Assembly (NCBI GenBank): GCA_038501195.1
Contig: JBBPUQ010000008.1
Span: 1,866,001-1,930,000 of the forward strand
Length of the DNA: 64,000 nucleotides
Direction of reading: 5' to 3'
From: Nemania diffusa
Taxonomy: Eukaryota; Ascomycota; Sordariomycetes; Xylariales; Xylariaceae
The notes beneath the pieces are model-generated. The model worked only from the letters and a program-made list of their open reading frames with translations, had not been told where the DNA came from and did no database searches. Numbering within the stretch: the first letter of the stretch is position 1; the number at the start of each line of letters is the position of its first letter. Shown here piece by piece: positions 13,675 through 64,000 of this stretch. Position numbers and translations under genes: made by a program.

Positions 13675-14172
13675 CAGCGCCGCACACAGGCAAAGTAATA
13701 CTTTGACTGCTTTTCAATTAATTGATATAATCCAGGCAAAACAATCGGTTTTAAATTAATTGCAGGCAAAGGGATAGTTTAGTATCTGACTTGATACTTC
13801 ATAATTACTTCCAATTATTTTTCCTATTTTTCAATAATTCTTTTGGTTGTTTTTATGGTTAAAAAGATGCTTCTTTTCCTAGGTAGGCTGGGTGGCACCC
13901 TGTTTTTAGACCCACTTACTTAGCATCCATATGGCCACTTACCAAGCCACTTACCGAGCCACTTAACTTACCTACTTACTTTTTACAACTCTGTACGCTC
14001 TATTATAACATCTAGCAATTTACGTCATTGCTCGGATTATTTAGTCAATTAACTTGATCAATTCAAGCAATAGATTCAGGCAAGTCAGTCAACTAAGCGG
14101 TTTTTGCGATCAATTTAGGTAAAACAAGTTTAGAGGCTATTATTTGACTGATTTTACCTGTGGGTAGCGCTG
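13675..14172. mobile_element. hAT-type MITE, diverged copy
   Basis: Sister of the complete element at 24220-24854. The right end TACCTGTGGGTAGCGCTG is intact; the left end CAGCGCCGCACACAGGCAAAG is a mutated form of CAGCGCTACCCACAGGTAAAG. The subterminal blocks ACTTTGACTG, CAATTAATTGA and CGGTTTTAAATT, and the near-right-end block TTTGCGATCAATTTAGGTAA, are shared. The internal AGCCACTTA repeat array is shorter here. The 8 bp on each side (TGTATCAG and TGTGGTTT) do not match, so any target duplication has decayed. There is no transposase frame. Confidence 0.8.
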
Positions 14173-24065: not shown

Positions 24066-24147
24066 TGTTAGAAATACACATTTGGAAAGAAAGATCAATA
24101 ATTGACCGGTCACGCCAAATCTTTTGGCGCAGTATTATTTTCTAACA
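24066..24147. mobile_element. 82-bp TG...CA mini-element with 5-bp target duplication, copy 1
   Basis: Begins TGTTAGAAAT and ends TTTTCTAACA, so the ends form a 9-bp inverted repeat and carry the TG...CA ends of integrase-type elements. It is flanked on both sides by TAATC (24061-24065 and 24148-24152), a perfect 5-bp duplication. The core holds a 10-bp palindrome TGACCGGTCA and a CGCCAAA/TTTGGCG stem. A second copy with a different 5-bp duplication lies at 52453. Confidence 0.85.
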
Positions 24148-24219
24148 TAATCCCAACCGATCAGACAATATGCCATTGAAAAATCATTTCATGTTTCATG
24201 TTGGTTAGAGTGTGGAATC

Positions 24220-24854
24220 CAGCGCTACCCACAGGTAAAGTAATACTTTGACTGACTGTCAATTAATTGACCCAATCCAGTCCAAATAATCGGTTTTAAA
24301 TTGATTGCAGATAAAGTAATAATTCTTTACCTGACTTGTTACTTGTTAATTACTTCCAATTAATTTTTCTATTTTTTTAAATATTTTTTTGTTGTTTTTT
24401 TTAGTAAAAAAGAGGCCTTCTTTTCTTAGGTAGGCTAGGTGGCACCCTGTTTTTAACCCCACGTCCTGCCCACATATTCAGCCACTTACACAGCCACTTA
24501 TACAGCCACTTATACAGCCACTTCTCTAGCTACTGATTTAGCTACTTACATTTACATTCTATTACCTTACTTACTAACCACTTTATTAACCACTTTATCT
24601 ACTACCTTATCTATCACCCTACCTACTTACTTACTTACATCTACTTACACCTACTTACACTTATTTATCTATTTACCTTGCTTTCTACAATCTGTACTTT
24701 TTATGTACATTGCTTAAGTTACTTAGTCAATTAACTTGATCAATCCAGTCAATAGATTTTAGCAAGTCAGTCAAACAAGCGTTTTTTGCGATCAATTTAG
24801 GTAAAACAAGTCAAGAGGCTATTATTTGACTAACTTTACCTGTGGGTAGCGCTG
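24220..24854. mobile_element. hAT-type MITE, complete copy with 8-bp target duplication
   Basis: 635 bp. Ends are inverted repeats starting CAGCGCTACCCACAGGTAAAG and finishing ACTTTACCTGTGGGTAGCGCTG. The flanks are identical 8-mers, GTGGAATC at 24212-24219 and 24855-24862; an 8-bp duplication and CAG ends are the mark of hAT elements. No transposase is encoded, so it depends on an enzyme made elsewhere. The middle contains an array of short degenerate units such as AGCCACTTATAC and CTACTTAC, longer than in the copy at 13675. Confidence 0.9.
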
Positions 24855-50755: not shown

Positions 50756-52452
50756 GCCCGGCCGGTAACAGAGGTGATCATAGCTTTGGGACGTGGTGTA
50801 AGGTTCATTAACTCTATACACCCTAAAAAATCACATTAACAAAGTCAATCGCAAATCACGAAGAATAAAGATATCACAGTGCCAAGTAAAAGCAGTTAGC
50901 AGTGAACAGACGTAATGAAATTCCTGTCGAGGCTGCTAGCTAGCTTGCAGTCACCTTCGGTAGCTGATCTTTGGCGAGCTGCAAGCCAGCTGGGTATCGT
51001 GTCCTTGCGTGAGACAAAGAGCTGATTATGCTCATAACATGTACGTGCTCCAGAAGCTGAGCCATCCCGTTCGAATCCGTCGCCCCCTAATATTCTGCTC
51101 ATAACCTAATTTGCTTCGGAAACTAAGCCATCCCAAACTGATCCCGTCTTCTCCATTGGTTGACGCTCATAACTGTCGCGTATTCGGTGCTCATAACTTG
51201 CTTGATGTGGTCGCTTCTGGGAGAGCCATTCTCATCCGACGCCTTCTAACACCACCGACATTCGCTTTGTGCCGCTTCGGGACTCCGCGAATGTCCTTTG
51301 TGCCTCCCCTATGAAGGCCGAGTGTCACGACCTCATACAGGCACCCCAGGCACTGAGCGCAGAGCTAAATGCCTAACCCGGCTGAGTTAGCGAATGCCCT
51401 CTCCCCGTTATGCGAATGGCAGGTGACTGGAAAGACGCTCTTACCTTCCCCTCAGCGATGGAGCCGACCGACACGGAGGTCACGGCGACCATGACAACAG
51501 CAATGATAGAGCTGATAGCGTCCATTCTGCTTGGCTGCTGGGGATTGGGGAAAAGTTTGTTGAAAATTGGGTTGAAAAGGGTGTTGATTGAGTCAAGGCT
51601 CAGCCTCTGGTCTTCTGAAACTTGTAGGGTGTGGGATTTCGACCACTCTTTATACCGATACACCAGACGAACCAAACCACCAAACGGTTCGTCATCGTCA
51701 CCCAATTCATCGGTTCTGGCGGTAGCGACCCGCCCTGAGTCTAATGAGTGGCTACGGATTCCACGCGTCTCATACCATGCCGCGAATTAAACCCCCTGAA
51801 GAGCGGTGAGATCGCTCGTTAGTGGCCACCGGCTTTGGCCCCGGCGGCCATTCACGACCAACATCACCTAATGCCCTGCAGACGGCCTATGAGACGACTA
51901 GACTATCCATTGCAAGCACGCGAGAGGTCCTACTGTGTGACATGTTTACCAACCTCCCTCTGGTTCTGCTGGCATTCCTTCATTGGCGAAGTGGTCGCTT
52001 GGCTAGATCCCAATCTCGCCAATCTGCTGGATTGGGCAACGCTAGCGCCAACGATTTGTTGGCATGGGAGAAAGGAACGACTAATTTGGTCGAATGCCCC
52101 CAACTTTTCGGGTTAGGTCGTGGATTATCCCCACCTGGTGTTTTCTAGCATGCGGGAAATTGTAGTTAGTCCCCTTTTGATCCTAAGGTATCTATACGTA
52201 GAAATAGCTACTCTACCCTCCGGTAGGTACCTTAGGATCACGGACTGTCAATAGGTACATTGAATACACATTTTGAGTCTTCATAACATTATATTAGGTA
52301 GCTTATTCCTTCAAGCGCCCATTCGGCTTAGTGACTTATTAGTATAATAATGGAGGTTCTTACATCATCAGCTACACACAATACAACAATTATACTATGC
52401 TTCGGGAGACCTTCATTAGTATATTTTGCATATGCAAGAAGACCATTCTACT
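50756..52452. other. Intergenic stretch with a degenerate tandem repeat
   Basis: Contains the roughly 67-bp diverged repeat at 51031-51260. Several short frames on both strands (51373-51705, 51822-52148) lack any recognised domain or exon partner. Nothing else supported. Confidence 0.5.
51031..51260. repeat. Diverged tandem repeat of about 67 bp
   Basis: CTCATAAC recurs at 51031, 51098, 51166 and 51190. In the first two units it is followed at matching distances by GCT, GAA, AGCCATCCC and ATCC..TC; the copy at 51190 also has AGCCAT and ATCCGACGCC. The unit at 51166 looks truncated to 24 bp. Not coding as far as can be seen. Confidence 0.65.
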
Positions 52453-52532
52453 TGTTAGAAATACACCTTTAGAAATAAAGAAAATAATTGACCGGTCACG
52501 CCAAACTTTTGGCGCAGTGGTTTTTTCTAACA
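52453..52532. mobile_element. 80-bp TG...CA mini-element with 5-bp target duplication, copy 2
   Basis: Same element as at 24066: ends TGTTAGAAAT and TTTTCTAACA, identical core ATAATTGACCGGTCACGCC and TTTTGGCGCAGT. Flanked by CTACT at 52448-52452 and 52533-52537, a perfect 5-bp duplication different from that of the first copy, which proves an independent insertion. About 88% identical to copy 1 by eye. Confidence 0.87.
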
Positions 52533-52747
52533 CTACTCATTAGTCACTTAGGTAGCTGAATAATCCACATCATTATTCAATTGCTTTGCATGTATCCAAA
52601 ACTAATATTTCAAAGGTTTATATTCTAGTTAAATTATTGTATATTGTTCAAACCTCACTTGAACGGGTATAAGGATTGTCCGAGTCTGTAGCGACTTCTC
52701 ACATTAGGAAACCATTTATAGCTAGTAAACCACGGCGCCGACGGCCG
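52533..52747. other. Short intergenic gap
   Basis: Between the 80-bp mini-element and the stop of the rhodopsin-domain gene. AT-rich, nothing recognised. Confidence 0.35.
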
Positions 52748-54108
52748 TTAGCTTGATATACTGAAATTCCGGTCATTTGGCCCGCGAACAGCGGTGGATA
52801 ACTCGACCTCCTTCACCACATGGATTTTTCCATGGTACAAATCATCGTTGCTAGAACCCGATCTCCTCAGAACGGCTGCCGCGACAGCTTGGGGTTGCAG
52901 AGGAGTCCCGGTTAGCATCGCAATTTCGACATCGGAGGGGATTTCGGTGCCGCCCTCTGGGGACGATCGAGTAGTCAGCCACCAACGATGGGAGTTCTTA
53001 GACGTTTCTGGTAGAGACGGTTTGTTCGAATGCCTCCGGTCGTCAGACTCGTGCGAGCGATAACCCTCGCGTCGCCGCTGAAACGTTTGGGACCACATCG
53101 GGTATATAGAAGGTATAGAACCACACATGATAATCAGTAAGGCCTCTGTGCTCAGCCAGACGTATACGTCGAACAAGTCCCACGTGTAGTCTGTTGACTG
53201 CCTCGCTATGTAGGAGCTCTTGGCCGCGGCGGCCCCGGCCGTAAGAAGTGTGAGCCCGAGGCCGGCGGTGAGGATGCGTTTACGTCGTGTCGGCATGCGC
53301 AGTCTCCAAACGATGAAAATGGGCAGAATAGAGAAGGAGAAGTCGACGAAGGCCTGCCAGACGGCTGTGAATGTTGTATATCGATTGAGGGCCGCAGGAT
53401 CGATGCATGTAGCAGCCGCGTGCAACTCAAAATCCCAAATTGCGCGGGGGTCACGGCCACACTGGAAGAGGCTGATGAAAATGTCGATAATGGAGCTGAC
53501 GGTTGTCACCGCAATGATAGCCCATACTACCCATCGTTCACTCGACGACGCGGAGCTGACGATACGGAGAATTGTGGCCCCAATGGCAATCTTTCCCAAT
53601 GCCGTGCACAAGATGCTAACAACCAAGACGACATAGGTTATTTCCAACTGAAAAGATATCTCCTGTGCCGTGAGGTATACCTCATGTCTCAAACCGCCGC
53701 TTGACTGGGCGGCAAATTGGACTGCCGGCTTCATTAGCCATCATCTCTCTTAGGGTAAGGGGATGCACGCGCTCGGCCCGGGGTGTCGTCTTCAGGGGCA
53801 CCGGGGGTCGGGCTAGAGCAACGCAGTTCAGAACGTACCGGCTGTCGCAGTTGCAATAAAAAACAACTAAATTATGTTAGTATGAAGCGCTTCGAAACAT
53901 CGATAGCAGAGTCAATTGAAATGTTAAAACTCCAGCGTACCCATGAACCAGTCATCAAGACATCATCAAGGCCAAGACTGAGCCTCAGGTATCGGGTCGT
54001 CAAGCGGAGGAAGATGAAGACGGTAGCAACTGAGAACTCGGTCCATAATAACGCCTCCAGCGCCGTTGCGCGACTCTCATCCGGAGGGAGCGGTGCTGAC
54101 ATTGACAT
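52748..54108 (-). CDS. Fungal rhodopsin-domain integral membrane protein
   Basis: Exons 53941-54108, 53839-53866 and 52748-53721 give 389 aa; the middle exon is only 28 nt (FFIATATA within segment 2) and phases agree. Seen: seven hydrophobic stretches; LRLTTRYLRLSLGLDDVLM after segment 1; CTALGKIAIGATILRIV; WDFELHAAATCIDPAALNRY with a conserved extracellular cysteine; FVDFSFSILPIFIVWRLRMP; and STEALLIIMCGSIPSIYP. This matches the large fungal rhodopsin-domain (PF20684-type, SAT4/PTH11-related) family, of unknown ligand. It has no CFEM domain. The C-terminal cytosolic tail is about 110 residues, hydrophilic. The first of two close ATGs is used; a longer upstream frame exists but lacks conservation cues. 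Confidence 0.85.
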
Positions 54109-59444: not shown

Positions 59445-62400
59445 TTTCTTAAATCAAACTTGCAATTTAACTTTTTACAATTATTTTTTCAATCTAGCAA
59501 TAATTTATTTAAACTTTTATATAAATTAATATATATATAGTTAATTTAATTATATTTTAAAATAATTATATAAATTAAATGTAGTTTTTTTAAATTAAAT
59601 TTATTATATATAATTTATAAACATATTAATTTTATATAATTTATATACTTTATTTTTTTATTAATTTTATTTTATTTGCTATAATTATTATAGTTGCTAT
59701 ATAATTTTATATAAATAAATTTTATTTTTATATTTTTAATAGTATTAAAAATAACTATAAATATTTTTAAATATTTTAGTTTGTTTTAAACTATATAAGT
59801 AGTTTTTAATTTGCTAATAAATATATTTGTTAGTTATAACTATATTTTATATTAACAAATATTATTTTTATATTTTTAGCAGTATTAATTTTAACTATAA
59901 ATATTTTTAGCTATTTTAGCTAATTTTATATTATATAAATATATTTTAATTTATTAATAAATATATTAAATAATAGCAATAATATTTTATATTAATAAAT
60001 ATTGTTTTTATATTTTTAGCAATATTAACTTTAATAATTAACTTTTTAAAAAATTTAAAACTTTTTTATATTATATAAACTTATTTTAACTTATTAATAA
60101 ATATATTTTATAGTAGCTATAGTATATTATATTAATAAATATTGTTTTAATATTTTTAAAAATATTATTTTTAATTATTAATAGTTTTAAAAACTTAAAA
60201 GTGTTTTAAATAATATAAATATAATTTAATTAAATAATATATATATTTTTATTAAAGCTAAAAAATTTAGTTAATATATTTTTTAATTAAAACTTTTAAA
60301 AATAAATTTATATTATTAATAAAAATATAAATTTATATAAATATATTATTTATATTATAACTATAGTAATATTACTATATAATATTTCGATTATTTTGTT
60401 AATATATTATATAACAAAATATTTAAAAAATTAAAACATAATTAATTAAAATAAAAATAATATTATTAAATAGTATATTTTATTTTTTAATTTTTAATAT
60501 ATTGTTTTTTTTTTGCTATATAAAATTGTAATAATTTTAATTATATTATATAAAATATATAAATAGTTTATTAAAATCAAATTTAATTAAATATATAGTT
60601 AATAATATAGTATTATTAAAGTTTATAAAAATATAAAAATATATAAAGTAATATTAAAGTATATAATTAATTTAAATATTAGTTAATTAATATAGCTTTT
60701 TATTTATTAATTTGTTAATATTTAAACTATTTGTTTTTATTTTTTGTATTTTTTGATTTTTTTATATTTTGCAAAAATTTTTTTTTATATGTTTTTATTA
60801 TATTTTGTTCTGTTTATTTTTTCTTTATTATTTATATATTATTAATTTTTTGTTTTAGTTATTATTATGTTTTTTCGATTATTTTTAAACTTTAAAGTTA
60901 GTAATATATTTTTGCTTATTTTATTTATTATATATATATTAGCTAATAATATTAAAAAATAAACTTTTTTTATTATTAAAAAGTTTTGCTAATATATATA
61001 TAACTAAATCTATTACTTTTTAAATATAACTTTTATATAATTTTTTAATATATTTTATATTATATTAAGCTAATATAATTTGTTATAAATATTTATATAC
61101 TATTATAATTTTAAAGTTATTATATTAAACTAAAAATATTAAAAAGTTAAATATAAAAAAAATATTTAAAAATGTTATATTGCTATTATATATTATTTGT
61201 TTATTAAAAATATAACAAAAAAAATATATATATAATATATATATAGTAAATCTTTTGGTTTAAATAATAAATATATTATTTCTAGTAGCAACAAGTTTAA
61301 TAGTATTTATATTAATTGTTTTTATTTAAGTATTAGCTATAACTATTTGTTTTATATTAATAAGTTATAACTTTAGTTAATTAAATATAAAAAAACAATT
61401 GCTAATTTATATTAATTTAGAAAAAAAAAAGCAAGCAATTGTAAAAAAAATTTAAAAATCTTTTAAAAAATTTATAAAAAAGATTTTTAATTAAATATTT
61501 ACTAAAAAATTAAAAAATTAGCAGTTTATATTTAAACAAGCTATTTATAACAAAACTTTAGTTAAATTATTTTATAAAAAGCAATATATATAAATAATAA
61601 TATTATAAATAAAAAATAAACAAACAAAAAATAAAAAATATTTATATAATAATATTATATTATATAATACTATAATAAAACATTAAGCTTTATTATATAT
61701 ATAAAATTTAATATATTAATTAAATCGATTTTTTATATATACTAAAAAATTTAAACAGTTTAAATCTATATTAATTTAAAATAAAAAGTTTAGTATTAAA
61801 AAACTTTAATTTTTATAAAAATATAATTATTTTATAATATTATAATAGTATATTTATATATAAAATTTATTAGTTTTTATTACAAACATATAATATCGAT
61901 ATAAAATAGATAATTTTATATTATTAGTTTTAAATATAAAATATAATGTTTAAACAAAAATAAATAATTTAAACTAAAAGTTTTAATAAAGCAATTTAAT
62001 ACTGTTATTTTAAGCTTAAATTAAATAATATAGAAATTTTAAAAAAGCTTAAAAAGCAACATTTTCAAATTAGCTAAAACAAACTTAAACAATATCAATA
62101 TAAGCTAAAAATATATTAATAGAAAATATTAGATCAAACTATATATTTGCAAATATAGCTTTGTAAGTTTTTTAGCAAACAGTTGCTATTTTTTTATATA
62201 ATACTACATTTATTACAATATAATTTATATTAATATATATAAAAAACAGCAGCAATTAACTTTTTTTGCAATATTATATTTAAAACATTTAAAAAATATT
62301 ATTTTTAAATATTAATAAAGCAACTATAAATAATTAAAAGTAATTATATTAGCTAAATAATACTAAGTTTAAATTATATATAGTATATTAATAAATATTA

Positions 62401-64000
62401 CAAGCTATAATATTAAAGTTTTGAAATATATAGTACAATTAATATATATTTATGCTATATTATTTAGTTTTATATTAAAACAATAATTATAATAAAAATT
62501 ATAGTATTTGCTTAATATATATATTATATTTAATAAATAAGCTTTTTATTAATAATAATATATTTAAATTAAAAATACAAAATAGTATTAACTATAATAA
62601 TATATTATTAGCTTTTAATAAGTAGTAGCAATATATATTTATTAAAACTATATTAAAACAAACAAAATAAATTAATATATGATTTAAATTAGCTAAATTA
62701 AACTTAATCAACTTTTAAAAAAAACATTAAAAATAAAACATTTCTATTTAAGTTATAACTACTTTAGTTTAATAACTGCTAGTTTTATAAAAAAAATACA
62801 AAAAACTAACAAATTAAGTTTTAATAGAACTAATTATATAAAAAATATAGAATATTTTAATAAATATATTATTTAAAAATATATTTAACTAGTTGTTTTT
62901 AAGCTAATTAAATAAATATAAAACTATTTCTAAAAACTTAAAAGCGAAAAATTGTAAAATAAAACTAACTAATTTGATTAAATTATATTAATATATATTT
63001 ATATATTTTTGCTTTAATATAAACTAAACAATTTTAAAAATAACTAAAATATATATATTATTTAAAAACAAAAAAATCGCTAATATGTTTATATAAATAA
63101 ACTTTAAGTGTTATATTATTAACTAGATCTAGCTTGAATAATTAATTGCTATATTAAATATAACAAATTACAATAGAATATATTATATTAGCTTATTTAA
63201 ATAGCAACAAAATAATATTAGAAATATTTATTTGCAAATATATTATAAATATACAACTAATATATAATTAAATGTTTTTAGTTTAATATAAATTGATTAA
63301 ATTATAAAAAGCTATTATTAAGCGAGTATTATTATTTGTAGCAATGTTTATATAAACATAAAGCAAATAATAAAAAACTAAAGCTGTTTTTATATTTACA
63401 ACTAGAAAAAAGATTTAAATATTTTAAAAAATAAGCAGTACAAAACAATATATATAAAAGCAAGCTAGAAAAAATAAATCAAAATAATAATAAATAAAAC
63501 ATTGTTTAAAAATATAAATTTAAATTATAATACTATTAGTTATAATAAATAAATAACTAAAATAAATTAAAATAAATTAAAATAAATTAAAATAACTAAA
63601 ATTATTAAAATAATAATAATAACTATAATAACTATAATAATTAAAATATTTAAAATAAACTAAAATAAATTAAAATAAATTAAAATAAATTAAAATAAAT
63701 AAAATAAAATAAAAATAATTATAATAACTATAAAAAATAAAATAAATAAAAATAATTATAATAATTATAATAATTAAAATAAATTAAAATAATAATAATA
63801 ATTATAATAAATTTAATAATTAAAATAAATTAAAATAATTATAATAAATATAATAACAATAATAATTAAAATAAATTAAAATATATTAAAATAATTAAAA
63901 ATAAATAAAACAAACTAAAATAATAATAATTATTATAATGATTAAAAAAAAAAAAAATAATTAAAATATAATAAAATAATTAAAAATAATAATAATAATT
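59445..64000. repeat. Extremely AT-rich block, probably RIP-decayed repeats
   Basis: From about 59445 to the window end G+C falls to roughly 5-20% in any 60-base line, with no usable reading frame. The change from normal sequence happens over about 50 bp. The first part (to about 61 kb) is T-rich on this strand and the last 2.5 kb is A-rich, which fits decayed elements in opposite orientation or a strand-biased process. This is the pattern of RIP-type mutation of transposons in Pezizomycotina. Element identity cannot be read any more. The block continues beyond the window. Confidence 0.85.
63560..63700. repeat. A-rich tandem decamer inside the AT block
   Basis: The unit AAAATAAATT is repeated in runs at about 63562-63591 and 63656-63697, with degenerate ATA and AATAATTAT units between and after. 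This looks like low-complexity decay or an original tandem repeat that has lost its G/C. Confidence 0.7.

What the first reader, a model, noticed from the sequence alone, without database searches (positions are those of the whole stretch)
24066..24147. An 80-bp mobile element with TG...CA ends and a 5-bp target duplication
Two copies (82 bp here, 80 bp at 52453) share TGTTAGAAA/TTTCTAACA ends and a nearly unchanged core, and each is flanked by its own perfect 5-bp duplication (TAATC here, CTACT there). Two independent insertions of something this small need an integrase or transposase acting in trans. It could be the shortest form of an LTR (solo LTR or SMART-like), or a non-autonomous Ginger-type DNA element, whose ends also start TGT with short duplications. 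I know of no named fungal family this short.
Basis: partly seen in the sequence, partly recalled or inferred. Interest (0 to 1): 0.75.

Follow-up and report, generated by a model that had tools for sequence, protein, structure and literature searches.

The report
Tiny retrotransposon ends with split promoter
The 80-base repeat is the leftover end of a 358-base parasitic DNA element in a wood fungus, one of several related families that probably borrow enzymes from a larger retrotransposon and may switch themselves on with a tRNA-type start signal split between their end repeat and their middle.

Summary
Both window copies are as described, with perfect 5-bp duplications. The host genome (an ascomycete, Nemania diffusa or very close) holds 39 places for this unit; 28 of 30 copies with both ends intact have a perfect 5-bp duplication. 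One locus shows what the unit is: two identical 80-bp copies flank a 198-bp interior inside one duplication (358 bp). So the unit is an LTR of a TRIM/SMART-type element and the window copies are solo LTRs. A 13-nt primer site beside the 5' LTR matches host tRNA-Lys(CTT). A larger, probably Copia-type family (the copy measured is AT-degraded) shares that primer site, the first 11 and the last 9 LTR bases: a plausible helper. At least five LTR families (68-82 bp) share a 16-17-bp module with a Pol III A box (TGGCGCAGTGG); a B box lies 113 nt downstream, in the interior, not the LTR. This resembles Helenus (TRIMs with tRNA-type promoters inside the LTR; its fungal hosts listed are Basidiomycota) but fails its definition. 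New variant of a known kind. Mobilisation by a helper is likely; Pol III transcription is inferred, not shown, and one relative lacks the A box in its 5' flank.

The parts
24066..24147 (+). solo LTR, family A, 82-bp form
   Evidence: sequence; one of 39 places in the genome
24061..24065 (.). target site duplication TAATC, left copy
24148..24152 (.). target site duplication TAATC, right copy
24125..24135 (+). A-box position in this copy, altered (TGGCGCAGTAT)
52453..52532 (+). solo LTR, family A, 80-bp form
   Evidence: 96% identical to the LTRs of the complete element
52448..52452 (.). target site duplication CTACT, left copy
52533..52537 (.). target site duplication CTACT, right copy
52510..52520 (+). 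A-box consensus match TGGCGCAGTGG

Best explanation
The two window copies are solo LTRs of a non-autonomous miniature LTR retrotransposon (TRIM/SMART type) of 358 bp: 80-bp LTR, 198-bp interior, 80-bp LTR. SHOWN by sequence: direct LTRs around an interior inside one 5-bp duplication; LTR ends forming a 9-bp inverted repeat (TGTTAGAAA/TTTCTAACA); a 13-nt site abutting the 5' LTR and complementary to the anticodon arm of host tRNA-Lys(CTT); many solo LTRs with 5-bp duplications. INFERRED, likely: reverse transcriptase and integrase come in trans from the larger, probably Copia-type family that shares the primer site and LTR termini; solo LTRs arise by LTR-LTR recombination. INFERRED, probable: transcription is by RNA polymerase III from a promoter split across the element. 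The A box lies in the LTR (position 58 of 80) and the B box in the interior, 113 nt downstream. Only a 5' LTR with its interior would then start a transcript, and solo LTRs and the 3' LTR would be silent.
For: Complete element at C1:6771019-6771376: identical LTRs, outer duplication ATAAT. 28 of 30 perfect 5-bp duplications; centre base A or T in 29 of 29 target sites. Larger family, L037 and L038: same 13-nt primer site, same first 11 and last 9 LTR bases. That LTR has 41 listed matches (40 of 82 candidates scored) including four pairs 5.83 kb apart by coordinates; the one of these fetched (L083) has the duplication AGTAC and 11% G+C between the LTRs. Boxes: 1 of 5000 shuffles has A in the LTR and B 20-200 nt after it; the strict A box is in 1 of 5000 shuffled LTRs (tested after seeing them). 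The 17-bp module has 113 places at up to 2 mismatches against 4 for the reversed pattern. Five LTR families share it at 94-100%; eight of ten pairs of their bodies align at 44-59%, shuffled mean 48%, sd 5%. Two diverged partial relatives found through the primer site, not the A box, carry GTTCRA in the interior, and an A-box match or near match in the one LTR each retains (L039 3' LTR, L040 5' LTR). Host tRNA-Lys(CTT): A-to-B spacing 102-108 nt in 4 of 4 fetched; elements 113 and 92.
Against: No transcript data. The 80-bp form has six Ts right after the A box, which should stop Pol III early; families B, C and D have no T run there, so their stop is unexplained. L039 has no A box in the 120 bp before its interior, where only the last 16 bp look like an LTR end. 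The B boxes of L039 and L040 miss the last consensus base. Families D and E were found by searching for the module, so their perfect modules are partly selected for. No tRNA gene with the exact TGGCGCAGTGGT D-arm under the pattern used. The larger family's RT and integrase were not identified: none of the 23 RVT_2 places falls between its four 5.83-kb LTR pairs, four short open frames gave no Pfam family, and no RT or protease motif was seen in forward frames of L083. Two Copia families with long open frames have other ends and primer sites. Solo LTRs far outnumber complete elements, the reverse of grass SMARTs.
Confidence: 0.7

Rival explanations
1. An ordinary Pol II-transcribed TRIM/SMART whose A-box and B-box matches are chance or serve another role (for example RNA packaging or strand transfer in the R region).
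For: Grass SMARTs have the same anatomy (292 bp, 85-bp LTRs, TGT...ACA, 5-bp duplications; passages). T run after the A box in one LTR form. No A box before the interior of L039; imperfect B boxes in both relatives.
Against: The A-box module is the body segment kept across LTR families, 113 places against 4 in the control; A plus B order and spacing rare in shuffles and like host tRNA-Lys genes.
Confidence: 0.3
2. Members of Helenus in the strict sense (TRIM with tRNA-derived A and B boxes both inside the LTR) whose LTR boundary I misplace.
For: Fungal Helenus has 5-bp duplications, anticodon-loop primer sites and Copia helpers.
Against: LTR boundaries are fixed by duplications in 28 of 30 copies and by the identical pair; the B box is at interior position 91, and only 12 bp of LTR follow the A box.
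Confidence: 0.05
3. Non-autonomous Ginger-type or other DNA transposon, 80 bp long, moved directly as such.
For: Terminal inverted repeats; nearly all copies are single 80-bp units.
Against: Complete element with direct repeats inside one duplication, primer site abutting the LTR, related elements with the same plan.
Confidence: 0.03
4. The 80-bp copies are single-LTR integrations (integrase acting on short or one-LTR reverse-transcription products) rather than recombined remains of full elements.
For: Solo copies far outnumber complete ones although the LTRs are only 80 bp, unlike grass SMARTs, where complete copies outnumber solos (passages).
Against: LTR-LTR recombination is the standard source; solo LTRs with 5-bp duplications also occur in Helenus and SMARTs.
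Confidence: 0.15

Closest known systems
Helenus (TRIMp3; Kojima 2024, PMC10886601)
   Same: Miniature LTR element, fungal ones with 5-bp duplications, primer site complementary to a tRNA anticodon loop, Copia families sharing the primer site, conserved A box in the LTR, solo LTRs.
   Different: B box is in the interior, not the LTR; host is an ascomycete, whereas the paper's table lists only Basidiomycota among fungi; tRNA-Lys(CTT) is not among the anticodon-loop primers it names for fungi (Tyr, Ile, Asp, iMet, Asn).
SMART / FRetro129 of grasses (PMC3281118)
   Same: 292 bp with 85-bp LTRs, TGT...ACA ends, 5-bp duplication, solo LTRs of 79-87 bp (passages).
   Different: Plants; complete copies outnumber solo LTRs there, the reverse here; I did not search that paper for Pol III.
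Cassandra and Ajax (TRIMs with 5S rRNA promoters)
   Same: Small-RNA-type Pol III promoter in a TRIM.
   Different: 5S rRNA-derived; no 5S match in the Rfam scan of the complete element.
Larger LTR family of this genome, probably Copia (LTR 204-205 bp; L037, L038, L083)
   Same: First 11 and last 9 LTR bases and 13-nt primer site in L037/L038, 5-bp duplication in L083.
   Different: 5.83 kb at full length; no A box or module in the LTRs of L037 and L038; L083 is AT-degraded.

Membership tests
TRIM (terminal-repeat retrotransposon in miniature) | two direct LTRs around an interior, under 1 kb, too short for retrotransposon proteins | tested here: met
   80 + 198 + 80 bp, LTRs identical
TRIM (terminal-repeat retrotransposon in miniature) | target site duplication of fixed length | tested here: met
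   28 of 30 copies with both ends perfect at 5 bp; complete element ATAAT
TRIM (terminal-repeat retrotransposon in miniature) | primer-binding site next to the 5' LTR | tested here: met
   13 nt complementary to host tRNA-Lys(CTT)
TRIM (terminal-repeat retrotransposon in miniature) | polypurine tract before the 3' LTR | tested here: inconclusive
   G-rich GCTGCGGGGGTG, not a pure purine run; similar ends before the 3' LTRs of L039, L115 and L118 by eye
Helenus | tRNA-derived sequence with A and B boxes inside the LTR | tested here: not met
   A box at LTR position 58, B box at interior position 91
Helenus | Pol III transcription | not testable with these tools
   no expression data; not shown experimentally for Helenus either
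Cassandra / Ajax | 5S rRNA-derived sequence in the LTR | tested here: not met
   Rfam scan of L028 1400-2000, E up to 1: one weak hit, to a Neisseria sRNA family
Retrozyme | hammerhead ribozyme in the LTR (definition recalled) | tested here: not met
   no hammerhead match in the same Rfam scan
Ginger DNA transposon derivative | single unit with terminal inverted repeats, no direct LTR pair and no primer site (definition recalled) | tested here: not met
   direct LTR pair and primer site
Copia superfamily (the proposed helper) | integrase before reverse transcriptase in one polyprotein | tested here: inconclusive
   L037 shows LDSGSNLH, which I recall as protease-like; RT and integrase not detected

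The most novel reading that the evidence does not exclude
A superfamily of very small LTRs (68-82 bp) in an ascomycete, driven by a Pol III promoter split across the LTR-interior border: A box in the LTR, B box in the interior, primer site in between. Only an intact 5' LTR plus interior can start RNA, so every solo LTR and every 3' LTR is transcriptionally sterile. At 358 bp the element would also be too short for repeat-induced point mutation, which seems to have destroyed copies of its larger helper family.
Probability: 0.45. Interest if true: 0.65.

Novelty: new variant of a known kind. Interest (0 to 1): 0.52.

Why it matters
It would extend Pol III-driven miniature LTR elements to Ascomycota and show that the promoter need not lie whole within the LTR, which changes how such elements should be searched for (LTR-only tRNA scans miss them). 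It also gives a testable case of an element small enough to slip under the fungal repeat-mutation defence while larger relatives are degraded. The length threshold (over 400 bp) is from one passage of PMC4522978.

Tried and rejected
ARAGORN found 0 tRNAs in the 29 family A loci scanned of 30 held (L027, the twin of L028, left out), at default settings that do not read introns, so it says little about targeting. Rfam found nothing credible. Copia families at C10 and C2 were examined as helpers and set aside: other LTR ends and primer sites. A pattern for a host tRNA with exactly the same A box gave 0. Pfam on four short open frames of the larger family gave 0 families; tblastn of three of them against 25 sequences (the RT loci and the C10 and C2 elements) gave no hits. 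A hairpin in the LTR (GCCAAA...TTTGGC) was considered as the functional core and dropped: B, D and E do not keep it by eye. L115 and L118, family D 3' LTRs behind sequence unlike the short interiors, might end a longer element with the same tiny LTR; not resolved.

Full report
WHAT IS THERE. The window is C8:1866001-1930000 of a 55.6-Mb genome in 16 contigs. A protein of the window (52751-53734, minus strand) is 100% identical over 99% of its length to one named for Nemania diffusa, and the other named hits are mostly Nemania and Xylaria. The host is thus a Xylariaceae ascomycete, Nemania diffusa or a close relative (one protein only).

GENOME-WIDE COPIES. The 82-bp query finds 39 places. An 80-bp copy as query finds 40; the added place is a copy of a related family, C, and one of the 39 (L101) also looks like a C fragment by eye. 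Setting aside the two LTRs of the complete element and 7 truncated or altered copies, 30 have both ends; 28 have a perfect 5-bp duplication, none extends to 6, and mismatched pairings agree in 7 of 870. In 29 target sites (28 plus the complete element) the centre base is always A or T. The 3 kb of flank (1.5 kb a side) has 12-52% G+C in the 29 loci measured, 41-52% in 26 of them.

THE COMPLETE ELEMENT. At C1:6771019-6771376 two identical 80-bp copies in the same direction enclose 198 bp, with a single outer duplication ATAAT. That is the plan of an LTR retrotransposon; the 80-bp unit is the LTR and the single copies are solo LTRs. The interior is found in three places only, one whole and two partial; two further matches are inverted matches inside two of these. 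Before the 3' LTR is a G-rich stretch, GCTGCGGGGGTG.

RELATED FAMILIES. A pattern search at the LTR/primer-site junction gave 74 matches at up to 2 mismatches, no more than its control (36 and 38 against 36 and 35), so single hits were judged by their flanks. Two are relatives: L039 (C1:2162325) has a 191-bp interior and a diverged 80-bp 3' LTR, with only an LTR-like last 16 bp on its 5' side; L040 (C5:4915689) has a 77-bp 5' LTR and a similar interior start, with no 3' LTR found. L040's LTR has five more places; four of five carry a perfect 5-bp duplication, one 4 of 5, and the C copy L107 has GTAGC on both sides. A search with the 17-bp A-box module gave 113 places at up to 2 mismatches, 4 for the reversed pattern (its list was cut short). 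These add families D (77-82 bp) and E (68 bp). Of the 12 terminal bases, 9 or 10 match as inverted repeats in every family; A, B and D have 9 or more in a row, each with its own sequence, as expected if one integrase must recognise both ends.

THE LIKELY HELPER. The same junction search hit L037 and L038: a family with a 204-205-bp LTR that begins TGTTAGAAATA and ends TTTCTAACA like ours and has the same 13-nt primer site. It has 41 listed LTR matches (40 of 82 candidates scored), with four pairs 5.83 kb apart and four pairs 2.2-3.9 kb apart by coordinates. One 5.83-kb copy (L083) sits in an AGTAC duplication and has 11% G+C between its LTRs, and 33 of 36 matches to its 142-residue frame carry stops, nearly all TAA. 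I read this as repeat-induced point mutation from composition only; no RIP index was computed. A protease-like motif (recalled) is visible in L037, but RT and integrase could not be shown: 0 of 23 RVT_2 places lie between the four long LTR pairs, and searches found nothing. So 'Copia' rests on the half-tRNA primer site, the 5-bp duplication and that motif. Two Copia families with RVT_2 and long open frames have different ends and primer sites.

THE PROMOTER READING. The LTR contains TGGCGCAGTGG at position 58, a perfect tRNA-type A box, and the interior GTTCGAATC at element position 171, a B box; besides the 3' LTR's A box these are the only consensus matches on that strand, and there are none on the other (consensus sequences recalled). 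In shuffles the combination occurs in 1 of 5000; the test was made after seeing the boxes. Across five LTR families the module is 94-100% alike, while eight of ten pairs of bodies align at 44-59% against 48% (sd 5%) for shuffled bodies; A/C and B/D bodies are closer, 76% and 71%. D and E were found through the module, so for them this is partly selection; B was found through L040's LTR, and L039/L040 through the primer site. L040 carries TGGCGCCGTGG (one base off the A box) in its 5' LTR and GTTCAATTA inside; L039 carries TAGCGTAGGGG in its 3' LTR and GTTCGAATA inside, but no A box in the 120 bp before its interior. Spacing between A and B starts is 113 nt (main) and 92 nt (L040); four of four fetched host tRNA-Lys(CTT) genes (of 11 matches) have 102-108 nt because of an insert in the T arm, so such a spacing is at home in this fungus. 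Against it also: six Ts behind the A box in the 80-bp form, and no T run there in B, C and D.

COMPARISON. Anatomy is that of SMARTs (292 bp, 85-bp LTRs, 5-bp duplications; passages of PMC3281118). The promoter idea matches Helenus (PMC10886601: abstract, introduction, first part of the methods, all results, discussion, legends and tables), whose fungal members have 5-bp duplications, mostly anticodon-loop primer sites, and Copia families with the same primer sites. By Kojima's definition the tRNA-like sequence is in the LTR; here only the A box is, so it is not a Helenus but works like one. That paper's main text has no 'ascomyc' and its table lists Basidiomycota only among fungi. Ordinary TRIMs have been annotated in ascomycetes (Venturia, passages of PMC4646964; a TRIM detection step in Pseudocercospora, passage of PMC13041039). 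Searches for TRIMp3/Helenus, for TRIM with ascomycete and Copia, and for LTR retrotransposon with RNA polymerase III promoter and fungal showed no ascomycete Pol III TRIM in the held library (listings; passages of some). Most listed papers were not opened; subscription papers and Repbase were not searched.

SOLO EXCESS AND RIP. One complete element against 29 solo LTRs with both ends is the reverse of grass SMARTs. Recombination is the simple reading; direct single-LTR insertion is not excluded. RIP is said typically to act on sequences over 400 bp (passage of PMC4522978); a 358-bp element falls below that, which fits its unspoiled copies beside a degraded larger family. That link is inference.

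Noticed in passing
L079, L080, L081, L082 (C1:4129242, C3:1306399, C3:3897527, C4:4842862): Four of four fetched host tRNA-Lys(CTT) genes (of 11 pattern matches) carry a 57-63-nt GT[AG]AGT...AG insert in the T arm just before GTTCGACC, with CTAA near its 3' end. It looks like a spliceosomal-type intron inside a tRNA gene; without it the T arm would be canonical. Two paper searches (listings only) showed nothing on it.
   Followed up: partly
window 13675-14172 and 24220-24854: A dispersed repeat (72-88% in three blocks) starts 73 bp downstream of the first LTR copy; by eye a third, inverted copy lies at C8:117900-118030.
   Followed up: no
window 59480-64000: AT-rich tail with a 140-bp periodic repeat (59550-60387) and many short tandem units, looking like RIP-degraded repeat DNA.
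   Followed up: no
C2:4402145, C3:4363826, C4:2589163, C7:3300373, C8:1947038, C10:2785090: Six Copia copies 97.8-99.9% identical over the 3.5-kb loci held, with open frames of 584-1688 residues and, at C2, identical 308-bp LTRs TGTTGGACC...ACCAACA: apparently recent, where most of the other RVT_2 places carry many stops.
   Followed up: partly
C10:3766406 to about 3772947: A Copia element with a 2041-residue open frame and identical 154-bp LTRs whose BLAST boundaries are not TG...CA.
   Followed up: no
L115/L129 (C8:117900-118450) and L118/L130 (C1:96770-97318): Family D LTRs preceded by a shared 3' interior end and then by sequence unlike the short interiors (AT-rich at C1); a long element with a 77-80-bp LTR may exist.
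   Followed up: partly
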